A DNA stretch of 64,000 bases. Source: Periplaneta americana (taxonomy: Eukaryota > Arthropoda > Insecta > Blattodea > Blattidae). Below the pieces are notes generated by a model. It did not search any database and was not told the DNA's origin. It saw only the letters and a list, made by a program, of their open reading frames with translations. The stretch is taken from the NCBI RefSeq assembly GCF_040183065.1, contig NC_091122.1:80725455-80789454 (forward strand). The letters run 5' to 3'. Positions 4,622-63,714 of the stretch are shown here, one piece after another. Position numbers and translations under genes: made by a program. Positions within the stretch are counted from its first letter, which is position 1. The number at the start of each line of letters is the position of its first letter.

Positions 4622-4799
4622 GAAATGTAGGCTTTCACGGCCGGCGTTGATAGGATGCATATATTTTCAGGGCAAGAGGGCCGTGGTCTGTCGGTGTTAC
4701 AACCAAACGTTTCGTCCACTACTCAAGTGGACATCTTCACTGGCGTGGTACACGTGTCCGGAGAGATCTGCTGTGTGTATTAGGAACTGGTATTGAGAC
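4622..4799 (-). repeat. PLE 3' end with hammerhead-like core, left copy
   Basis: On the minus strand this reads GTCTCAATACC, then a stretch with TGAAGAT-GTCCAC, a short loop, GTGGAC and GAAACG, then GACAGACCACGGCC and the outer end. It is the inverted partner of 12422-12567 and related to the arms of the palindrome at 63025-63333. The core C is G here (GTGAAGA rather than CTGAAGA), so ribozyme activity is unlikely for this copy. Confidence 0.6.
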
Positions 4800-6015
4800 T
4801 CGAAAAAAATCGAAAAATCGAAAGGGGATAATTGGGAGGAAAAATTTTAAGGTACGCATAACGTGTCCTTGCAAGGGGTTGGGGGCTGTAAGAAACTAAA
4901 TATGTGAGCTCCAAGCCTGTTACGCTGCTCCACTGAAGGAGCTCTAGAAAATTTTGAAGAGGATAACCGAAAATGGACGTAACCTCTTAGGTACCACATA
5001 CGCGAGGGGGACTGAAATGTGATCAAAGGATCACGGGACGGGGCGAGGAGGAAATGGCTGGTGTTTGCCGTTAGGATGGCAGGTGTCATCTTGCACATTG
5101 AAAGGGGCTTAGCCATTTCGCAGTGCAAGTGGAGTCGTGAAGACTCTGTCATCTGTTGTTCGATGACAAGGCAAGTGAAGGCCGTCAGAAGAAGCTCCGT
5201 GAAATCTAAATCTGCAATTTGAGAGGTCCCTGACCTTTCAAATTGCGACTAATTGAGTGACCTCGTACATTTAATAGACAATTTATAGGTTCTGAACTAG
5301 GGCATACGTCGTTTACAAGAAAAGGGGAATATATATGGGGAAGGGCATATAGGTCCGTGGCCCATTTCTTATAGGGCTCATCGCGACATTTGACTTACGC
5401 CTTAGGAAAACCACGGAATACCTTAGGCAGGATGAGTTTTGTCATATAAAAGACTAGCCAATTTGGCTATTAGGTAGGAGGTGATTGTTGTCATGAGCCT
5501 TGTTGAATAGTCTCAATTTAGAGACCGCCCATTTGGCTTTATGGTGACTCAATTACGAAGAGAGGGGAGAGATGAAATTATTAATTAATTTAGAGTAATT
5601 AAAGGGATTCATGGGGATACGAGTGCAGGTCCGTTGCCCATTTCTTTTAGGGCTCATCCCGACATTTGTCTTAGCGCCTTAGGAAAACCACGGAAAAAAC
5701 TTAGGCAGGATGAGTTGTCTCAACTTCAGAGACTAGCCAGTTGGCTCTTAGGTAAAATGACTCTATGAATCGATGGATATATACTAGCCAATTGGCTCCA
5801 TGATAGTTCCATCGATCAACAAATTTAGATATTGTTAGGGAGGGATTTTGTTTAGCCCAGTTAAGACAAGGTCATTTCAAAGCGGTTGCACTATCCAAGG
5901 AGTTTCATGGAGTCTAATCGTGACTACCAAAACCTAGGAGTAACGCCAGCCTCCCTGTCCTCCTGTCTCAAGGGTATAGCTAATGGACTTGTAGGTGTCT
6001 ACGCCGTAACCTAGG
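4800..6015 (-). repeat. LINE 3' tail, inverted copy 1
   Basis: Reverse complement of the LINE 3' region at about 11207-12421, at high identity throughout (shared TCGATTTTT end, the TTAGGCAGGATGAG block, and the TTACGGCGTAGACACC start). It lacks the A-to-G bias of the adjoining 6016-6438, which makes a sharp boundary near 6016. It includes no complete ORF. Confidence 0.75.
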
Positions 6016-6438
6016 ATCACACTGGCCGAGACCAGACACGAGCGGGCCGGGGCCAGCACGAGCCCCCGCACACAGGCCCCCAGCCAGCCGGGCAACGAAC
6101 CCGCCCATGGCCGGCAACCCCAGCCCACCACGGAACCCCCCCCCCCTCGAGGCAACCCGGGGGAGACGGGCAACGAGTCGAACCACCCGGCTCTAGACAA
6201 CCCGGAGTCCACGGAGACGGGACACCGCCGCAAACCCCCACGCGGGCGCGGCACAGGCAACGACAGAGCGAACGAGGGCCCCACACATGGTAAGTCCTAT
6301 CCCCAGGTTGTCCTACCATGCACAAGGTCCTCACTCGCCCCGCCACTACCCACGCCGCACTCGCACGGGGGTCCGCGGCAGCGCCTCACCAACGCAAACC
6401 CCAAGCGATCCAAAACCAGGCGACCCGACCCACCACCT
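6016..6438 (-). repeat. A-to-G hypermutated LINE hairpin (arms 6016-6290 and 6312-6438)
   Basis: The minus strand of 6016-6290 is LINE sense sequence (matching 11216-10940). 6312-6438 matches LINE 10935-11063 in the opposite sense, so a minus-strand transcript folds back on itself over about 120 bp. On that strand arm 1 shows about 54 A-to-G changes, no G-to-A and about 8 other substitutions; arm 2 shows about 26 A-to-G among about 35. The connecting loop (6291-6311) keeps its A positions. GC content is extreme only here. The ORFs seen across it on both strands are by-products of the base bias, not genes. Confidence 0.85.
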
Positions 6439-6449
6439 GGCATTGAGAC

Positions 6450-7499
6450 GAAAAAATCGAAAGAGAATTGGGAGGACAAATTTAAAAGGTACCCAAATGC
6501 GTCCTTGCAAGGGGTTGGGGGCGGTACAAAACTAAATATGTGAGCTCCAAGCCTGTTGGCCACTATTCTCATTCCGGGTTACGCTGCTCCACTGAAGGAG
6601 CTCTAGAACATTTTGAAGGGGAAGCCGAAAATGGACGTAACCTCTTAGGTACCACATATGCGAGGGGGACGGAGATTTGATCAAGTGATCACGGAACGGG
6701 CCGAGGAGGAGATGGCTGGTGTTTGCCGTTAGGATGGCAAGACGCTGTCATCTGTTGTTCGATGACAAGGCATGTGAAGGCCGTCAGAAGAAGCGCCGTG
6801 AAATCTAAATCTGCAATTTGAGAGGTCCCTGTCCTTTCAAATTGCGACTAATTGAGTGACCTCGTACATTTAATAGACAATTTATAGGTTCTGAACTAGA
6901 GCATACGTCGTTTACAAGAAAAGGGGAATATTTATGGGGAAGGGCATATAGGTCCGTGGCACATTTCTTATAGGGCTCATCGTGACATTTGTCTTACGCC
7001 TTAGGAAACCACGGAATACCTTAGGCAGGATGAGTTGTCTCATATATAAGAGACTAGCCAATTTGACTATTAGGTAGGAGGTGATTGTTGTCATGAGCCT
7101 TGTTGAATCGTCTCAATTTAGAGACCAGCCATTTGGCTTTATGGTGACTCAATTACGAAGAGAGGGGAGAGATGTAATTATTAATTAATTTAGAGTAATT
7201 AGGGAGATTCATGAGGATATGAGTGCAGGTCCGTGGCCCATTTCTTTTAGGGCCTTTCCCGACATTTGTCTTAGCGCCTTAGGAAAGCCACGGAAAAACC
7301 TTAGGCAGGATGAGTTGTCTCAATATCAGAGACTAGCCAGTTGGCTCTTAGGTAGAATGACTCTATGAATCGATGGATATATACTAGCCCATTGGCTCTA
7401 TGATAGTTCCATCGATCAACAAAAGTAGATATTGTTAGGGAGGGATTTTGTTTAGCCCAGTTAAGACAAGGTCATTGTAAAGCGGTTGCACTATCCAAG
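6450..7499 (-). repeat. LINE 3' tail, inverted copy 2, 5'-truncated
   Basis: Same orientation and content as 4800-5900 but starting at the CTTGGATAGTGC point of the tail. It is bounded on both sides by the same 11 bp, GTCTCAATGCC on the minus strand (plus positions 6439-6449 and 7500-7510), as expected for a target-site duplication of a 5'-truncated LINE insertion into PLE sequence. Confidence 0.7.
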
Positions 7500-8060
7500 G
7501 GCATTGAGACTGGTAGCACGTCGATATTCAAGGTGTGGGGCTGTTGTTTCTTGTCGTCGCCGCGGTCCGCACTAGTGGCTTCGGTGTTATGATTGTTTGT
7601 GGTAGTGTCTAATTGTCGGAGAAAGGGTTTGATGTGTGTGCTTCAGAGGGCCGGATACCAAGCTTTGTTGACCTTGAGTCCTTCCTCCTAACGGTTAAAG
7701 TTGTTTTAGTGTTTATGAATCTCAATAGCTTCCCGATGTAACCTGGCATAGAAGTGTGGCGTACTGCTTAGGATGTCGGTGTCCTGGAACCTGATGTTGT
7801 GATCCCCATCATTATAAGCATGCTCGGCTACAGCTGACTTGTCCACGTAACCTAGACGGCAGTTCCTTTTATGCTCGGTGATTCGGGTCTTGAAGCTACG
7901 CTGTGTTGTACCTATGTACACTGACCCACAGGAACACGGGATTCTATATACTCCAGCTGATGAAAGTCGGTCACGTTTGTCCTTGACAGACCGTAAGCAG
8001 TTACGAGTCTGTCTAGTAGTAGTGAAAATTGTCTCCGCGTTGTGTTGTTGCAAGATACTA
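7500..8060 (-). pseudogene. Penelope-like element: GIY-YIG endonuclease and 3' tail
   Basis: The minus-strand ORF at 7706-8053 encodes a GIY-YIG nuclease domain of the PLE type: GVYRIPCSCGSVYIGTTQRS, then FKTRITEHKR, then AEHAYNDGDHNI. Here the family's GIY and YIG appear as GVY and YIG, with the usual Cys pair and the EHKR helix. PLEs use it with their reverse transcriptase for target-primed integration. The RT portion is absent. The tail (7500-7600) reappears inverted at 8061-8153, joined at a 9-bp palindrome (GTGTTGTTG / CAACAACAC). Fossil fragment. Confidence 0.75.
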
Positions 8061-8153
8061 CAACAACACCGAAGCCACTAGTGCGGACCGCGGCGACAAC
8101 GACAAGCAACAACAGCCCCACACCTTAAATATCGACGTGCTACCAGTCTCAAT
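8061..8153 (+). repeat. PLE tail in plus orientation, upstream flank of the LINE
   Basis: Inverted copy of 7501-7594 (GAAGCCACTAGTGCGGACCG through CGTGCTACCAGTCTCAAT). It ends in GTCTCAAT, where the LINE begins. The same motif, GTCTCAATGCC, resumes after the LINE 3' end at 12422, so the LINE lies inside a PLE copy with a TSD of 8-11 bp. Confidence 0.65.
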
Positions 8154-8181
8154 ACAGGCGGACATCCCTTCGCTGTTGGAT

Positions 8182-8583
8182 ATGCCCATTGCCGCGCCTC
8201 TGTGGTCCACCGTGGCAGCGACAGCCCCCCAAACTGCTGCCAATAATGTAGGACCTCTTTCCCAGCGCCCTAAGCGCAACAGGGGCAGCAGAAAAGCCAC
8301 CAAGGCTACCACGGTAGAGTCCATCTCCGCACCTGTCCCACCAGCCCAGCAGGAAGCTATTGCAAGCACCTCGAAAAACCCGACCGATCAAGGTGCTCCA
8401 CTCGACCAAGTCCAGCACTTTGCCGAGGCGTTGGAATTAGCAAACCCCAACCTCCCCCTCGCCCCAATCCTAGAAGGATTAACGAGGGTGATAGTTCTCC
8501 TTATAGAGAATCCTATGTCTGCCCTCCCGGAGATATTTAAGCTCCTAACCTCCCTCGTTTCTCTCAATGGCCAGACGAAGTGA
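8182..8583 (+). pseudogene. LINE ORF1 C-terminal part (134 aa)
   Basis: The open frame runs from 8029, but its first 42 codons are PLE tail sequence; the LINE-derived part starts about 8154 and its first Met is at 8182. It has a basic middle (RPKRNRGSRKATKA), a Ser/Thr/Pro-rich segment and a hydrophobic end (ILEGLTRVIVLLIENP). No CCHC knuckles are seen. It overlaps the start of ORF2 by 17 bases, usual for Jockey-type elements. Confidence 0.55.
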
Positions 8584-11247
8584 CGAAGTTGCTAGGATGT
8601 GTATATGGAACGCCAGGGGCCTTAGACATGATAGACATGAGTTCAGGGCTTTCCTAGACACTAATAATATAGACGTAGCATTTATAACAGAAACGTTCCT
8701 GACACCCCAAGTAAATTTAAGATGCGCGGGGTTTAAAGTCTATAGACAAGATAGAGCAGGTAGAAGAGGCGGAGGTGTACCGGTGTTCGTTCGTTCTTCG
8801 AAAGCACACTGTGAGTATATCCTTCCCCAGCTAGCGCCATTAGAGGCAGTGGCTATTAGAGCCTACATAGGCAGCCTCCCCTTTCTGCTTATGGCTGCCT
8901 ACAGTCCTCCGGGCACACTAAATGAACGCGATTTAGATATAGTGACAAGTCTATCCCATAGATTCGTAGTCGCCAGCGACTTCAACGCGAAGCACGCTAG
9001 CTGGAACTGTCAACCCCGCAATCGGCAGGGCGATAGGCTTTTTCTAAATTCTACAGGAAACGGATACGTCGTGATGGCCCCTAGGGAACCCACACACGTG
9101 CCGGATGCTGCAAATCAACTTCCCGACATTTTGGACATTCCTCTGGTGAAAGGTCTCACAACTAGAGCGAGACTAACAAGCCTGGATGATCTTCCGTCCG
9201 ACCACCTACCGGTGATAATGGAGATCATGCACCCAGTCGAACTCTCCCCAACCGCTGAGAAATTCATCTACAAGGCGGCAGACTGGGTGTTCTTCCAAGA
9301 CCAGGTACCCGCTACGCTTCCACTCCCCCAGAAGTCACTCCGGCAGGGATAGATAAGTCAGTTAGCGACCTGACGGAGTGCATAAAGAAGGCAATGAGTG
9401 TTGCAATACCGAAACGGTCTTCACAACCGGGACGGATGCAACTCCCAGCCTATATTAGAGACCTAAAGAGCGCCCGCAATAGAGCAAGAACATTGTGGAA
9501 GCGTACTAGGTTAGATGAACATAGAATAGAAATGAACCGCTTGCGTAGGCGGATCAGTGAGGCGGTCCACGAAACGGTCGTAGATGCTAGGAAATCCAAG
9601 TTTGAGACGTTGGACAGCAGAAACATGTCAGATATCTGGCGTGTATCTCGAACTCTGTCCAATCCGTCTCAATCTATACACCCATTAGTAGTCGGTCCAG
9701 ATGTCACGGCCTTTACTCCTGAGGAGAAGGCTACCGCACTGGCAGACGTTCTAGAGACCACTTTTCAACCCTTGGAACAAAATTTAAACTTGCCCCATAT
9801 CAGAGCTGTTGAGGAATCGGTGCGAGACCTCCTTAGCAGGTAGCCGGAAAATGGGATACGACCTACGAACACCCACGAGGTCGCCCATTTCATTCGTCCT
9901 CTCGGCCCTCATAAGGCCGCAGGAGCCGACAATATCCAAGGGATTATATTGTTGCATCTCCCAAGGTCAGCTATGAACCGCATAGCAGAGATAATTAATA
10001 ACATCTTGGCTTCCGGTCACTATCCTATTCCCTGGAAAGAGACTCACGTAGTTCTCTTTCCAAAGCCCGGAAAGGATAAGACGAATCCAAGCAACTATAG
10101 GTCTATTAGTCTCCTCAGTTGTCTCAGCAAACTGGCGGAGCGGGTTATTCATAGACGCCTCACTGAAGTAGTGTTGCCCTAAATCAGGAACGAGCAGTTC
10201 GGTTTCCACCCTGGTCGTTCCACCACACTGCAGGCACTCCGCATGACGGAACACATTACCTGGGCTATGAGCACGAAGCGTGTAGTAGCTGCAGCTTACC
10301 TGGACATCGAGCGAGCATTCGACAAGGTTTGGCATGAGGGACTCCTCGTTACGTTATTGGGCATGGGAGTCCCAGATGGAATGATACGCCTCATTTCTAA
10401 CTACCTCCGAGACCGCACATTCAAAACCCGTGTAGGCACTAGTTTCTCCATCCCACCTGAAATTCACGCAGGAGTCCCACAGGGTTCCATTATCGAGCCC
10501 ATACTTTTCAATGTATTCATTAATGATCTCCCGTTTCGCTATATCCACGGCAGAAATAGTCATCTGTATATCTATGCAGACGACACTGCCCTCTTGGCGA
10601 TGGGCAAAACCTATAGATTGGCGTCCCGTAAATTGCAGTCGATCTTAGATCACTTCCAACCGTGGTTCCACGACTGGAGAATCAACGTCAATGTAGAGAA
10701 ATGTCAGGCCATACTCTTTTCACTAAGAGCGAGGCTCGAAGACATACCACCACCACCCACACTTTTCGGACAAGAAATGCCGTGGATGAACCAAATTAAA
10801 TATTTAGGGATCATTATGGACTCTCGTCTCACCTTCCGAGATCACATCCAATCCCTTCTTCGTAAGACCAACGGGCTGATAGTTAGACACTATCCCATTC
10901 TGGCGGCCTTAACTCCTGACAACCTGGGGGTAGGACTTATCATGTATAAGGCCATCATCCGCTCTGTCATTACCTATGCCGCTCCCGCATGGGGGTTTGC
11001 GGCAGTGTCCCATCTCCGTAAACTCCAAGTTATCCAAAACCAGGTGATTCGACTCATTACCCATCTCCCCCGAGTCGCCTCGAGAAGAAAGTTCCATGAT
11101 GAACTAGAGTTGCCAACCATAGACGAGTTCATTACTCGACTGGCTAGGGACCTGTATGCGGAAGCTCGTGCTAACCCCAACCCGCTCATATCTGGCCTCG
11201 GCCACTATGATCCTAGGTTACGGCGTAGACACCTACAAGTCCATTAG
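8567..11247 (+). pseudogene. LINE ORF2: APE endonuclease and reverse transcriptase (Jockey clade)
   Basis: 8567-9352 is the APE domain: CIWNARGLRHDRHEF, ITETFLTP, VASDFNAKHASWNC, then SLDDLPSDHLPV near the catalytic His. 9394-9843 is a linker region. 9949-10182 and 10243-11247 carry RT: AYLDIERAFDKVWH (catalytic Asp), AGVPQGS, then IYADDTALL. The frame is interrupted near 9350, 9843 and 10182, so the copy is dead. The product would nick DNA and prime reverse transcription on it. Base use is normal, in contrast to its hypermutated relatives at 6.0-6.4 kb. Confidence 0.85.
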
Positions 11248-12421
11248 CTATACCCTTGAGACAGGAGGACAGGGAGGCAGGCGTTACTCCCAGGTTTTGG
11301 TAGTCACGATTAGACTCCATGAAACTCTTTGGATAGTGCAACCGCTTTGAAATGTTCTTGTCTTAACTGGGCTAAACAAAATCCCTCCCTAACAATATCT
11401 AAATTTGTTGATCGATGGAACTATCATAGAGCCAATGGACTAGTATATATCCATCGATTCATAGAGTTTCTGAAATTGAGACAACTCATCCTGCCTAAGG
11501 TTTTCCCGTGGTTTTCCTAAGGCTCTAAGACAAATGTCGGGATGAGCCCTAAAAGAAATAAGCCACGGACCTGCACTGATATCCCCATGAATCCCTTTAA
11601 TTACTCTAAATTAATTAATAATTACATCTCTCCCCTCTCTTCGTAATTGAGTCACCATAAAGCCAAATGGCCGGTCTCTAAATTGAGACGATTCAACAAG
11701 GCTCATGACAACAATCACCTCCTACCTAATAGCCAAATTGGCTAGTCTCTTATATGAGACAACTCATCCTGCCTAATGTATTCCGTGATTTTCCTAAGGC
11801 GTAAGACTAATGTCGGGAAGAGCCCTATAAGAAATGGGCCACGGACCTATATGCCCTTCCCCATATATATTCCCCTTTTCTTGTAAACGACGTATGCCCT
11901 AGTTCAGAACCTATAAATTGTCTATTAAATGAACGAGGTCACTCAATTAGTCGCAATTTGAAAGGACAGGGACCTCTCAAATTGCAGATTTAGATTTCAC
12001 GGCGCTTCTTGTGACGGCCTTCATTGCCTTGTCATCAAACAACAGATGACAGAGTCTTCACGACCCCACTTGCACTGCGAAATGGCTAAGCACCTTTCAA
12101 TGCGTAAGATAACACCTGCCATCCTAACGGCAAACAACAGCCATTTCCTCCTCGCCCCGTCCTGTGATCCCTTGATCACATTTCAGTCCCCGTCGCGTAT
12201 GTGGTACCTAAGAGGTTACGTCAATATTCGGTTATCCCCTTCAAAATTTTCTAGAGCTCCTTCAGTGGAGCAGCGTAACCCGGGGTGAGACTAGTGGCCA
12301 ACAGGCTTGGAGCTCACATATTCAGTTTCGTACAGCCCGCAACCCTTTGCAGGGACGCGTTATGCGTTTTTTTTAATTTTTCCTCACAATTATCCCCTTT
12401 CGATTTTTCGATTTTTTTCGA
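11248..12421 (+). repeat. LINE 3' untranslated region
   Basis: From the ORF2 stop to the TCGATTTTTCGATTTTTTTCG end. Contains recurring submotifs such as GACTAGCCAATTTGGCTA-type blocks and CATCCTGCCTAAGG, seen in both inverted copies. No ORF of note. Confidence 0.7.
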
Positions 12422-12567
12422 GTCTCAATGCCAGATCCTGATACACACAGCAGATCTCTCCGCACACGTGTACCACGCCAGTGAAGATGTCCACCGGAGT
12501 ATTGAACGAAACGTTTGGTTGTAACATCGACAGACCACGGCCCTCTAGCCCGGAAAATACGCATCCT
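12422..12567 (+). repeat. PLE 3' end with hammerhead-like core, right copy
   Basis: Begins GTCTCAATGCC and continues with GTGAAGAT-GTCCAC, a loop, GAAACG and CAGACCACGGCC. Inverted partner of 4622-4799. It lacks the outermost 30 bp (the CACGGCCGG segment) present on the left. 12582-12930 shows nothing recognisable. Confidence 0.6.
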
Positions 12568-44286: not shown

Positions 44287-45833
44287 TATATAATCATGAC
44301 ATGGTATGGAAGAAACATTCTAAATATTTAGAATGTTTCTTTCCACCCATAAGAAATGCTGACTAGATCAGACGCTATGGACAGTACTCTATAACAGAGT
44401 CGCCGGTATGAGAGGAGAATCTCAAGCCTTTGGCGTGAAATGAACTCGATAGCTCAGTTGGTAGAGCACCTGACCGGAGTACAGGAAGTCGCAGGTTCGA
44501 ATCCCTCTCGAGGTTGTGAAATTTTTCTTTCATACCATGCCATGATTGTGACTACATAAGTATATAAAATTCATTAATACGTCATCCAACATCGTAAGAT
44601 GAAGTTTACATTTAAAAATTGATTGCACAAACGTATGATGGTGCAGCGACGATGGTGGGAAATTTGAATGGAGTACAAGCATTAATCAAAGTCACACATC
44701 CAGAAGCCCTATTTTCCACTGTTATGCCCATGTACTGAACCTCGTTTTGTCTCAAAGCACCAGCCAAATATCTGAGTGTAAAATATTTTTTAGTATGCTT
44801 AATGGACTTGCAGCTTTTTTTTCAAGATCGCCAAAACGTGCTAACTTTTTGGATCAATTTTTGCAACGTCGTCTTCCACACATCTGTCCACCGCAATGGA
44901 ATTATTCATCAAGACTGGTGAACACTGTGTGCAGGAACAGAATTCAACTTTGTAATGTGTTTTGTGCTATGCTAGAACACCCTCAAGAAATTGAGTCAGA
45001 TATTTTAGCACCAATTAATGGCTTTTTGACACTTTTTGGAAGATTTCAAATTTGTTTTTCTCTTAAATACGTTTGACAAAATATTTACCTTCACCGATGT
45101 GTTGTACAACATCCTACAGAACCAAGCAAATGATATTCTGTACTGTCAACAGAAAATACAAGAAACTCGCCATTCCATAGCTACATTACGTAACGATTAT
45201 GAAGGGGTTTTCGAAGAAACCGTGTCTCAAGTAGGTGAGCCTTCGAAGAGAAAAAATATCAACTATAAACGCATCTATTGCAAAGTGTTTGATAATATTG
45301 ATAACCACTTAGATTTAAGATTTCAAGATTATTCTAAACTGAAATTTTTTAATTTATTGTCGCCTCAAAACTCTGAAAAATATACTAACCAATTCCCAGA
45401 AAGTTGCTTTCAAAGTCTCATAGATACATATGGAAAAATTTTCGACATCATTCGATTGAAAAATGAGCTGAACGTAGTGTACAGCAGTGAAGAGTTTGGA
45501 AATAAAACCATGAGTGAACTTGCAAAACTATTGAGTAGGCCTACTAATTCAATGCTGAAAAAAAGTTTTCAGCAGTATAATGTGTTTGTGACATTACTGT
45601 GTACAATTCCTGTGAGTACGTCTTCAGTAGAAAGGTCGTTTTCAACGCTGAAGAGAATCAAGAGCTACTCTCGAAATTCTACTGGAGAAGATTGACTATC
45701 TCATCTTGGAATTATTTCAATTGAAGCCTGCGTACTAGGAGAACTCGGGAAGAAGAAAGAGTTCTTTGATGAGGTGGTTACCAAATTTGCTTCCCAGGAG
45801 AGAAGGATTGAATTTCAGTTCCGTTGATCTTGC
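43378..45833 (+). pseudogene. hAT transposase (ZMYM1-like group)
   Basis: From the N terminus: NGWPAPELPNLVQK and CDWLAGSAELNAVFCWYYLL (zinc-binding region), NRDILKRLINAVCFLGKQE, GNYVELLKYTAEYDPRL, VFKGISNRIQNDLIQAV, AAMVDETSNVANKAQFSIV (catalytic Asp). After the SINE: TYDGAATMVGNLNGVQALI. The C-terminal dimerisation domain is IPVSTSSVERSFSTLKRIKS. Frame changes near 43480, 43650, 43830, 44740 and 45060 and a stop after STGED show decay. The family acts by cut-and-paste on its own ends. Confidence 0.8.
44221..44613 (+). repeat. SINE with tRNA-like promoter inside the hAT element
   Basis: Perfect 12-bp TSD AAAAATTGATTG (44209-44220 and 44614-44625). Interior: an AT microsatellite, then TAGCTCAGTTGGTAGAGCA (A box) and GCAGGTTCGAATCC (B box). 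The putative T stem does not pair, so it is not a working tRNA gene. Removing it restores the hAT reading (EKLI...AQTYDGAA). Confidence 0.75.
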
Positions 45834-63024: not shown

Positions 63025-63333
63025 TTGCAGTGTAGGCTATCACGGCCGGAGTCTATAGATCTAGATTCATTTTCCGGGCTGAGAGGCCGTGGTCTATTGG
63101 TTGGTTTTATACCAGACGTTTCGTCTGCAACTGCGGCAGACATCTTCAGTGGAGTGGTATCCGAGGTCGCAAGACTCTTCTCGGCGTACCTGAGGCAACT
63201 GATGTACGCCGAGAAGAGTCTTGTGACCTCGGATACCACTCCACTGAAGATGTCTGCCGCAGTTGCAGACGAAACGTCTGGTATAAAACCAACCAATAGA
63301 CCACGGCCTCTCAGCCCGGAAAATGAATCTAGA
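63025..63333. mobile_element. PLE-derived palindrome with 13-bp TSD and two hammerhead-like motifs
   Basis: Exact duplication ACTGGTACTGATT at 63012-63024 and 63334-63346. Arms 63060-63189 and 63204-63333 (130 bp each) are almost perfect inverted copies around a 14-base spacer. Each arm contains CTGAAGA-T-GTCTGC ... GCAGAC-GAAACG-TC. The left side has an extra PLE terminus (TGTAGGCTATCACGGCCGG). The long ORFs read through it on both strands have the same protein because of the symmetry and are not genes. Confidence 0.85.
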
Positions 63334-63714
63334 ACTGGTACTGATTGTTTAATCTAATGTAAGATGTTGTCAATTGAAGTTTGCACTTAATACATTTTGC
63401 ACCATCACAAGGGATATAATACGTTTTGAAGCAATTTTGTGACATAATACGATTTGCATCTATAAACCATGCCGAATTGTGCCCTGTCATTAGGCAGTTT
63501 TTTCTGTGCTTTTTACAGCAGCATACTAGATAGAACGATATATCAATAGTTTTTATTGCTTTCTGCTGGAAAAAATAATGATAAGGAACAGCGAGTTTCG
63601 TACCTGCAACCCTTCGGATGGAGCTGCCTAAAGAGACATACTTTGGATTGTGCTGCCACCCGGGTCGATTTCTAACTCACATTGAATATAAATTTTAAAT
63701 AATTATGCCATCTA

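What the first reader, a model, noticed from the sequence alone, without database searches (positions are those of the whole stretch)
6016..6438. Genomic fossil of A-to-G hyperediting in a retroelement hairpin
Seen: relative to the LINE at 10935-11216, the minus strand of arm 1 (6016-6290) differs by about 54 A-to-G, 0 G-to-A and about 8 other substitutions. Roughly 85% of the A positions are changed. Arm 2 (6312-6438), which is the opposite LINE sense, shows on the same minus strand about 26 A-to-G among about 35. The 21-base loop keeps all its A positions. Flanking copies of the LINE tail are not biased, and the change stops sharply near 6016 and 6438. Known: ADAR enzymes deaminate A to I in double-stranded RNA and I is copied as G; APOBEC/AID and RIP give C-to-T or G-to-A instead. 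Inference: a minus-strand transcript folded, was hyperedited in its stem, and was reverse-transcribed into the genome with the composite. The unpaired 140 bp of arm 1 is also edited, so the partner was once longer and was lost at the 6438 junction.
Basis: partly seen in the sequence, partly recalled or inferred. Interest (0 to 1): 0.95.

Follow-up and report, generated by a model that had tools for sequence, protein, structure and literature searches.

The report
Genomic fossil of RNA hyperediting
A cockroach chromosome carries a jumping-gene copy whose RNA most likely folded back on itself, had most of its adenosines rewritten by an RNA-editing enzyme, and was then copied into DNA, so that an RNA-level event is preserved in the genome.

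Summary
By size and counts the host assembly matches Periplaneta americana PAMFEO1_priV1. Against the majority of 18 related LINE copies, arm 1 (minus strand, 6016-6290) has 59 substitutions: 55 A-to-G, 0 G-to-A; 55 of 64 adenosines are changed. Arm 2 (6312-6438) has 25 A-to-G among 32 substitutions (4 G-to-A); 25 of 34 adenosines. The loop keeps 6 of 6 adenosines, and 19 of 19 beyond the arm-1 edge are kept. The copy's own tail has 6 A-to-G at 317 adenosines. None of 60 control rows has more than 2 A-to-G in arm 1.

The hairpin is the 5' end of its own LINE insertion (about 4799-6436), between 12-base duplications (11 of 12 identical). By the LINE 3' tail, the edited strand is the RNA strand. 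Best reading: an RNA with a fold-back stem was hyperedited by ADAR, then reverse-transcribed and cut short within arm 2.

Unedited fold-back copies of this LINE exist, one with the same landing site. ADAR's 5'-G avoidance is not significant (19/26 against 61/72, p=0.15). Editing of 82% exceeds the roughly 50% usually quoted. Four pattern probes and one converted query found no second edited copy.

The parts
6016..6290 (-). Arm 1, LINE sense, hyperedited: 55 of 64 ancestral A read G
6291..6311 (-). Loop, LINE sense, 6 of 6 A kept
   Evidence: fold
6312..6436 (-). Arm 2, LINE antisense, hyperedited: 25 of 34 ancestral A read G (counted over 6312-6438); cut short at its 5' end
6437..6448 (-). 5' target-site duplication TCTCAATGCCAG
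4787..4798 (-). 3' target-site duplication TCTCAATACCAG (11 of 12 identical)
4799..6015 (-). Unedited end of the LINE and its 3' tail, same insertion; internal control (38 substitutions, 6 A>G, counted over 4795-6015)
6452..7500 (-). Neighbouring 5'-truncated LINE copy A at the same target; its substitution types were not counted
8154..12416 (+).
7706..8053 (-). GIY-YIG frame, taken as part of the Penelope-like element around the insertions

Best explanation
The stretch is a germline fossil of ADAR hyperediting. A transcript of a LINE copy that carried a fold-back (antisense arm, short loop, sense arm, LINE 3' tail) folded into a long double-stranded stem. An ADAR changed about 80% of the stem adenosines to inosine on both arms and spared loop and tail. 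The LINE reverse transcriptase then copied this RNA from its 3' tail into a target in a Penelope-like element, reading inosine as G. It stopped within arm 2, so only about 127 bases of that arm remain although 275 bases of arm 1 are edited. Shown: substitution pattern, strand, boundaries, short flanking duplications, unedited fold-back relatives, deaminase exons in the genome. Inferred: that the enzyme was ADAR, that the stem was within one molecule and at least 275 pairs long, that the missing arm was lost by 5' truncation, that the target is a Penelope-like element.
For: 80 of 98 stem A read G, against 6 of 317 in the tail of the same insertion. The A>G lie on one strand in both arms although the arms have opposite LINE sense; by the 3' tail that strand is the RNA strand. 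Loop 0 of 6, flank 0 of 19. In the surviving stem 47 A:U pairs became G:U (25 with the A in arm 2, 22 with the A in arm 1), and no pair changed on both sides. Short duplications put the insertion end at the arm-2 break. Unedited fold-backs of the same LINE: L009 with the same landing site; L037 and L031, whose arms differ at 6 of 927 and 6 of 1005 sites. A_deamin exons, one with NDTHAEIIARR, at C7:68.03-68.06 Mb. Fully A>G-converted LINE query: this copy ranks first at 90%; the other listed matches are at 73-75% (40 of 844 candidates scored).
Against: ADAR's 5'-G avoidance is not significant (19/26 against 61/72, p=0.15), and there is no 3'-G preference (19/23 against 61/75, p=0.58). Editing of 82% is above the 'up to 50%' usually quoted (abstract of PMC2075533 in the listing). 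No surviving unedited locus with the same junction was found. Only one such copy is known, and there are no RNA data. The good fold of the pre-edit stem is partly built in, since both arms were set to one ancestor. Copies B and C share the same 3' junction, so they may be related by duplication rather than by two separate insertions.
Confidence: 0.9

Rival explanations
1. Intermolecular version: separate sense and antisense LINE RNAs paired and were edited by ADAR. The reverse transcriptase copied the sense RNA and then jumped onto the antisense RNA, which made the inverted arm during insertion.
For: It gives the same A>G on one strand in both arms. It needs no genomic fold-back source, and none with this junction was found.
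Against: It needs an antisense RNA with ends at both edit limits and a precise template jump. Genomic fold-backs of this LINE exist without editing, one with the same landing site.
Confidence: 0.15
2. The stretch belongs to a naturally GC-rich LINE subfamily, or it is old decay, biased gene conversion or another ordinary mutational process.
For: High GC locally (0.656 at 6001-6500).
Against: No relative above 79% to the edited stretch among the 40 of 770 candidates scored. 55:0 A>G to G>A in arm 1. Other changes are at tail rate. Loop and flank keep their A. In the surviving stem no pair changed on both sides.
Confidence: 0.02
3. Another mutator: AID/APOBEC or RIP (C>T or G>A), adenine-targeted random mutagenesis as in diversity-generating retroelements, or ADAR acting on DNA in an RNA:DNA hybrid.
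For: These are mutators recalled as able to cluster changes.
Against: The direction is A>G. 80 of 82 changed stem A became G (1 C, 1 T), unlike random mutagenesis. The changed strand is the RNA strand, not first-strand cDNA, and the pattern follows stem and loop.
Confidence: 0.03

Closest known systems
[quoted passage not shown] its reference Hajjar and Linial 1995 seen only in the reference list)
   Same: A>G clusters ascribed to ADAR in reverse-transcribing elements, one at an inverted repeat
   Different: Those are retroviruses with nearly 50% of A changed. This is a non-LTR element inherited in an animal genome, with about 82% changed and stem, loop and truncation readable
Ultra-edited and Alu-overlapping human RNAs (PMC3197674 passages)
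   Same: RNA with dense A>G in double-stranded structures
   Different: Those are seen in RNA only; here the edited state is in the genome
APOBEC DNA editing of retroelements (PMC2873906 passages)
   Same: Clustered one-type substitutions in retroelement copies
   Different: G>A from cDNA deamination, not A>G from RNA
LINE copies with 5' inversion or fold-back (recalled: twin priming, template switching)
   Same: Inverted 5' segment in a LINE insertion
   Different: Here the inverted segment duplicates the same piece and both arms are edited

Membership tests
ADAR hyperediting product | Predominant A>G on the RNA strand | tested here: met
   Arm 1 55 of 59, arm 2 25 of 32 substitutions
ADAR hyperediting product | Confined to double-stranded RNA, loop spared | tested here: met
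   80/98 in arms, 0/6 in loop, p=9e-5; 0/19 beyond the edge. The distal part of arm 1 (32 of 36 A edited) has no partner today
ADAR hyperediting product | Neighbour preference (5' G avoided, 3' G favoured) | tested here: inconclusive
   5'G 19/26 against 61/72, p=0.15; 3'G 19/23 against 61/75, p=0.58; near saturation
ADAR hyperediting product | ADAR gene in the host | tested here: met
   A_deamin exons at C7:68.03-68.06 Mb, one with NDTHAEIIARR; the whole gene was not assembled and dsRNA-binding domains were not sought
ADAR hyperediting product | Loss of the pattern without ADAR | not testable with these tools
   needs an experiment
LINE insertion by target-primed reverse transcription | Target-site duplication | tested here: met
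   TCTCAATGCCAG at 6437-6448 and TCTCAATACCAG at 4787-4798
LINE insertion by target-primed reverse transcription | Family 3' end present, 5' end truncated | tested here: met
   TTTCGATTTTTCGATTTTTTTCGA end; 5' break inside arm 2
AID/APOBEC or RIP product | C>T or G>A clusters | tested here: not met
   3 C>T and 0 G>A in arm 1; 4 G>A in arm 2
Diversity-generating retroelement mutagenesis | A changed to any base | tested here: not met
   80 G, 1 C, 1 T among 82 changed A

The most novel reading that the evidence does not exclude
Editing went past the usual limit of about half the adenosines because the element went through more than one cycle. An edited fold-back copy was inserted, its G:U-wobbled stem was transcribed and edited again, and it was inserted again. 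ADAR would then act as a recurrent germline mutator of fold-back LINE copies, an RNA-level counterpart of RIP.
Probability: 0.15. Interest if true: 0.9.

Novelty: new variant of a known kind. Interest (0 to 1): 0.74.

Why it matters
If right, it indicates that an RNA edited at about 80% of its stem adenosines can still be reverse-transcribed by a LINE and inherited. ADAR editing of germline transposon RNA could then be dated and counted from genome sequence alone, without RNA samples. It also makes an open question testable: whether ADAR acts on mobile-element RNA in the germ line and whether edited RNA is still a substrate for retrotransposition.

Tried and rejected
Rejected: pairing of this copy with the inverted plus-strand LINE C (about 1.6 kb of complementarity) as the edited duplex, because editing would then reach over the tail 4799-6015, which has only 6 A>G at 317 A. 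Rejected: L009 as the direct source; its 3' part is too diverged (80.5-88.5% to copy C) and its junction is 5 bases longer. The C14 pattern match shows no LINE homology in its locus and is taken as chance. Other edited copies: four A>G-converted patterns at up to 3 mismatches. The two in the arm region found this locus alone, which serves as a positive control; the two in the tail found nothing and have no positive control. The 698-base converted query scored 40 of 844 candidates, so short edited copies could be missed. Papers: seven searches on editing (open-access PubMed Central only) listed no title or abstract start that reports an ADAR-edited LINE hairpin fixed in a genome. Three more searches were on other points. 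That is no proof of absence.

Full report
Where it is. The window is G000:C6:80725455-80789454 in a genome of 3,231,669,367 bases in 91 contigs. Passages of PMC12774602 give 3.23 Gb, 91 scaffolds and a scaffold N50 of 188.1 Mb for Periplaneta americana PAMFEO1_priV1, and contig C6 here has 188,082,718 bases. I take the host to be the American cockroach, assembled from PacBio HiFi and Hi-C. This is a match by size and counts, not by name.

The observation. I built an ancestor as the majority of 18 copies (17 fetched copies plus copy C) close to the insertion in its unedited tail. On the minus strand, arm 1 (6016-6290) has 59 substitutions: 55 A>G, 3 C>T, 1 T>C, 0 G>A. Arm 2 (6312-6438, opposite LINE sense) has 32: 25 A>G, 4 G>A, 1 A>C, 1 A>T, 1 G>T. 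Two bases of that stretch, with one of the G>A, lie in the flanking duplication. Of 98 ancestral A in the arms 80 read G. Against the consensus of the young family, over the longer piece LINE 10900-11330, this copy gives 56 A>G, 3 G>A, 6 C>T, 2 T>C and 3 other. The tail of the same insertion (4795-6015) gives 38 substitutions, of which 6 are A>G, at 317 A; 80/98 against 6/317 has p=6e-60. Other kinds of change do not differ in frequency between arms and tail (p=0.57), so A>G alone is in excess. In 60 control rows (59 fetched copies plus copy C; L002 and L009 are one place; the 18 ancestor copies are among them) the arm-1 columns hold at most 2 A>G, and no type exceeds 7 in any 275-column stretch.

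Boundaries. The loop 6291-6311 keeps 6 of 6 A (against the arms p=9e-5). Beyond the last edited base at 6020, 0 of 19 A at 5941-6012 are changed (p=5e-12). Folding the inferred pre-edit sequence of the surviving stem (6438-6161) gives 131 pairs and -273 kcal/mol; the present sequence gives 124 pairs and -189. The near-perfect pre-edit stem is partly built in, because both arms were set to one ancestor. In it 47 of 63 paired A and 1 of 5 unpaired A read G. Of the A:U pairs, 25 became G:U with the A in arm 2 and 22 with the A in arm 1; no pair changed on both sides. That is what deamination of a duplex leaves after copying. Arm 1 is edited at 23 of 28 A where a partner survives and at 32 of 36 where none does, so the partner was probably longer when editing took place.

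The insertion. On the minus strand the order is: a GIY-YIG frame (7706-8053; Pfam E=1.6e-5), taken as part of a Penelope-like element; the sequence TACCAGTCTCAATGCC; a 5'-truncated LINE copy A (about 7500 to 6452); TCTCAATGCCAG (6448-6437); the hairpin and LINE tail (6436 to 4799); TCTCAATACCAG (4798-4787); and further sequence that also follows copy C. The hairpin copy thus looks like its own target-primed insertion with a 12-base duplication (11 of 12 identical), and the arm-2 break is its 5' truncation point. One caution: copies B (the hairpin copy) and C have the same 3' junction, so part of this arrangement may come from duplication. Because the LINE 3' tail sets the direction of copying, the minus strand corresponds to the RNA, and the A>G are on it in both arms.

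Relatives with fold-backs. L009 (C10) has the same LINE piece as a hairpin with the same landing site; its junction is 5 bases longer and its arms are unedited (1 A>G in each arm against the ancestor). L037 and L031 have inverted arms, compared over 927 and 1005 columns, that differ at 6 sites each, with 1 and 0 A>G. So this LINE family makes fold-back copies, and their transcripts would be long double-stranded RNA. A pattern fitting the edited junction and its inferred unedited form found this locus, L009 and one match taken as chance. The source copy has not survived, or was not reached.

Enzyme. The genome has two regions with the A_deamin domain (6 matches). One, at C7:68.03-68.06 Mb, is split over exons and holds the sequence NDTHAEIIARR; the HAE signature is recalled as ADAR's. 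The other is a 433-residue open frame at C6:15.29 Mb that I take, by eye, for an ADAT1-like gene; in the PDB its matches are ADAR structures. Neighbour preference, the usual fingerprint, is inconclusive: 5' G 19 of 26 edited against 61 of 72 (p=0.15), 3' G 19 of 23 against 61 of 75 (p=0.58). With 82% edited little contrast is left.

Mechanism. Best reading: a fold-back LINE transcript was hyperedited in its stem, then reverse-transcribed from its 3' tail into the target, and the copy ended inside arm 2. The main rival is editing of two separate RNAs followed by a template jump; the fold-back loci in the genome make the one-molecule version simpler. A DNA-level deaminase, a GC-rich subfamily, RIP or random adenine mutagenesis do not fit direction, strand, loop or product base. 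Pairing with the inverted LINE copy C, complementary over about 1.6 kb, would have edited the tail too, and the tail is not edited.

What is odd. The edited fraction is 80 of 98, while 'up to 50%' stands in the abstract of PMC2075533 (listing) and 'nearly 50%' is given for an avian retrovirus inverted repeat in PMC12925331 (passage). More than one cycle of editing and insertion could explain this: after copying, I:U becomes G:U, which still pairs and might be edited again. No partly edited intermediate was found. The best other matches to the edited stretch were 75-79% among 40 scored of 770 candidates, and the converted query ranked this copy first at 90% with the other listed matches at 73-75% (40 scored of 844). 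Four converted patterns found this copy or nothing. These probes cover one LINE family at a few places and do not exclude edited copies of other elements.

Known or new. A>G clusters ascribed to ADAR are on record for retroviruses (PMC12925331, passage). Dense editing of double-stranded human RNA is described in PMC3197674 (passages), and retroelement DNA editing by APOBEC gives G>A (PMC2873906 passages). Seven searches on editing among open-access papers listed no ADAR-edited LINE hairpin fixed in a genome; only titles and abstract starts were seen for most. I rate it a new variant of a known kind.

Noticed in passing
window 4787-12434: Three copies of the LINE (two on minus, one on plus) sit at one and the same target sequence, apparently in a Penelope-like element; 3' flanks of other copies differ, so the LINE is not strictly site-specific.
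   Followed up: partly
L037 1-2865, L031 1-2863: Fold-back copies of the LINE with inverted arms of about 0.9-1.0 kb that are about 99.4% alike; possible sources of long double-stranded RNA.
   Followed up: partly
L009 4635-5110 and window 6291-6330: Two fold-backs use the same landing site (TTACCATG in LINE sense) with different cDNA ends, which suggests a hot spot for fold-back priming.
   Followed up: partly
window 63057-63336: A 97% palindrome with arms of 138 bases and a 4-base spacer.
   Followed up: no
window 44443-44515: A tRNA match above the Rfam gathering score.
   Followed up: no
L070 1501-2802 (minus): A 433-residue open frame with an A_deamin domain, perhaps ADAT1 (by eye), besides a separate ADAR-type gene on C7.
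   Followed up: partly
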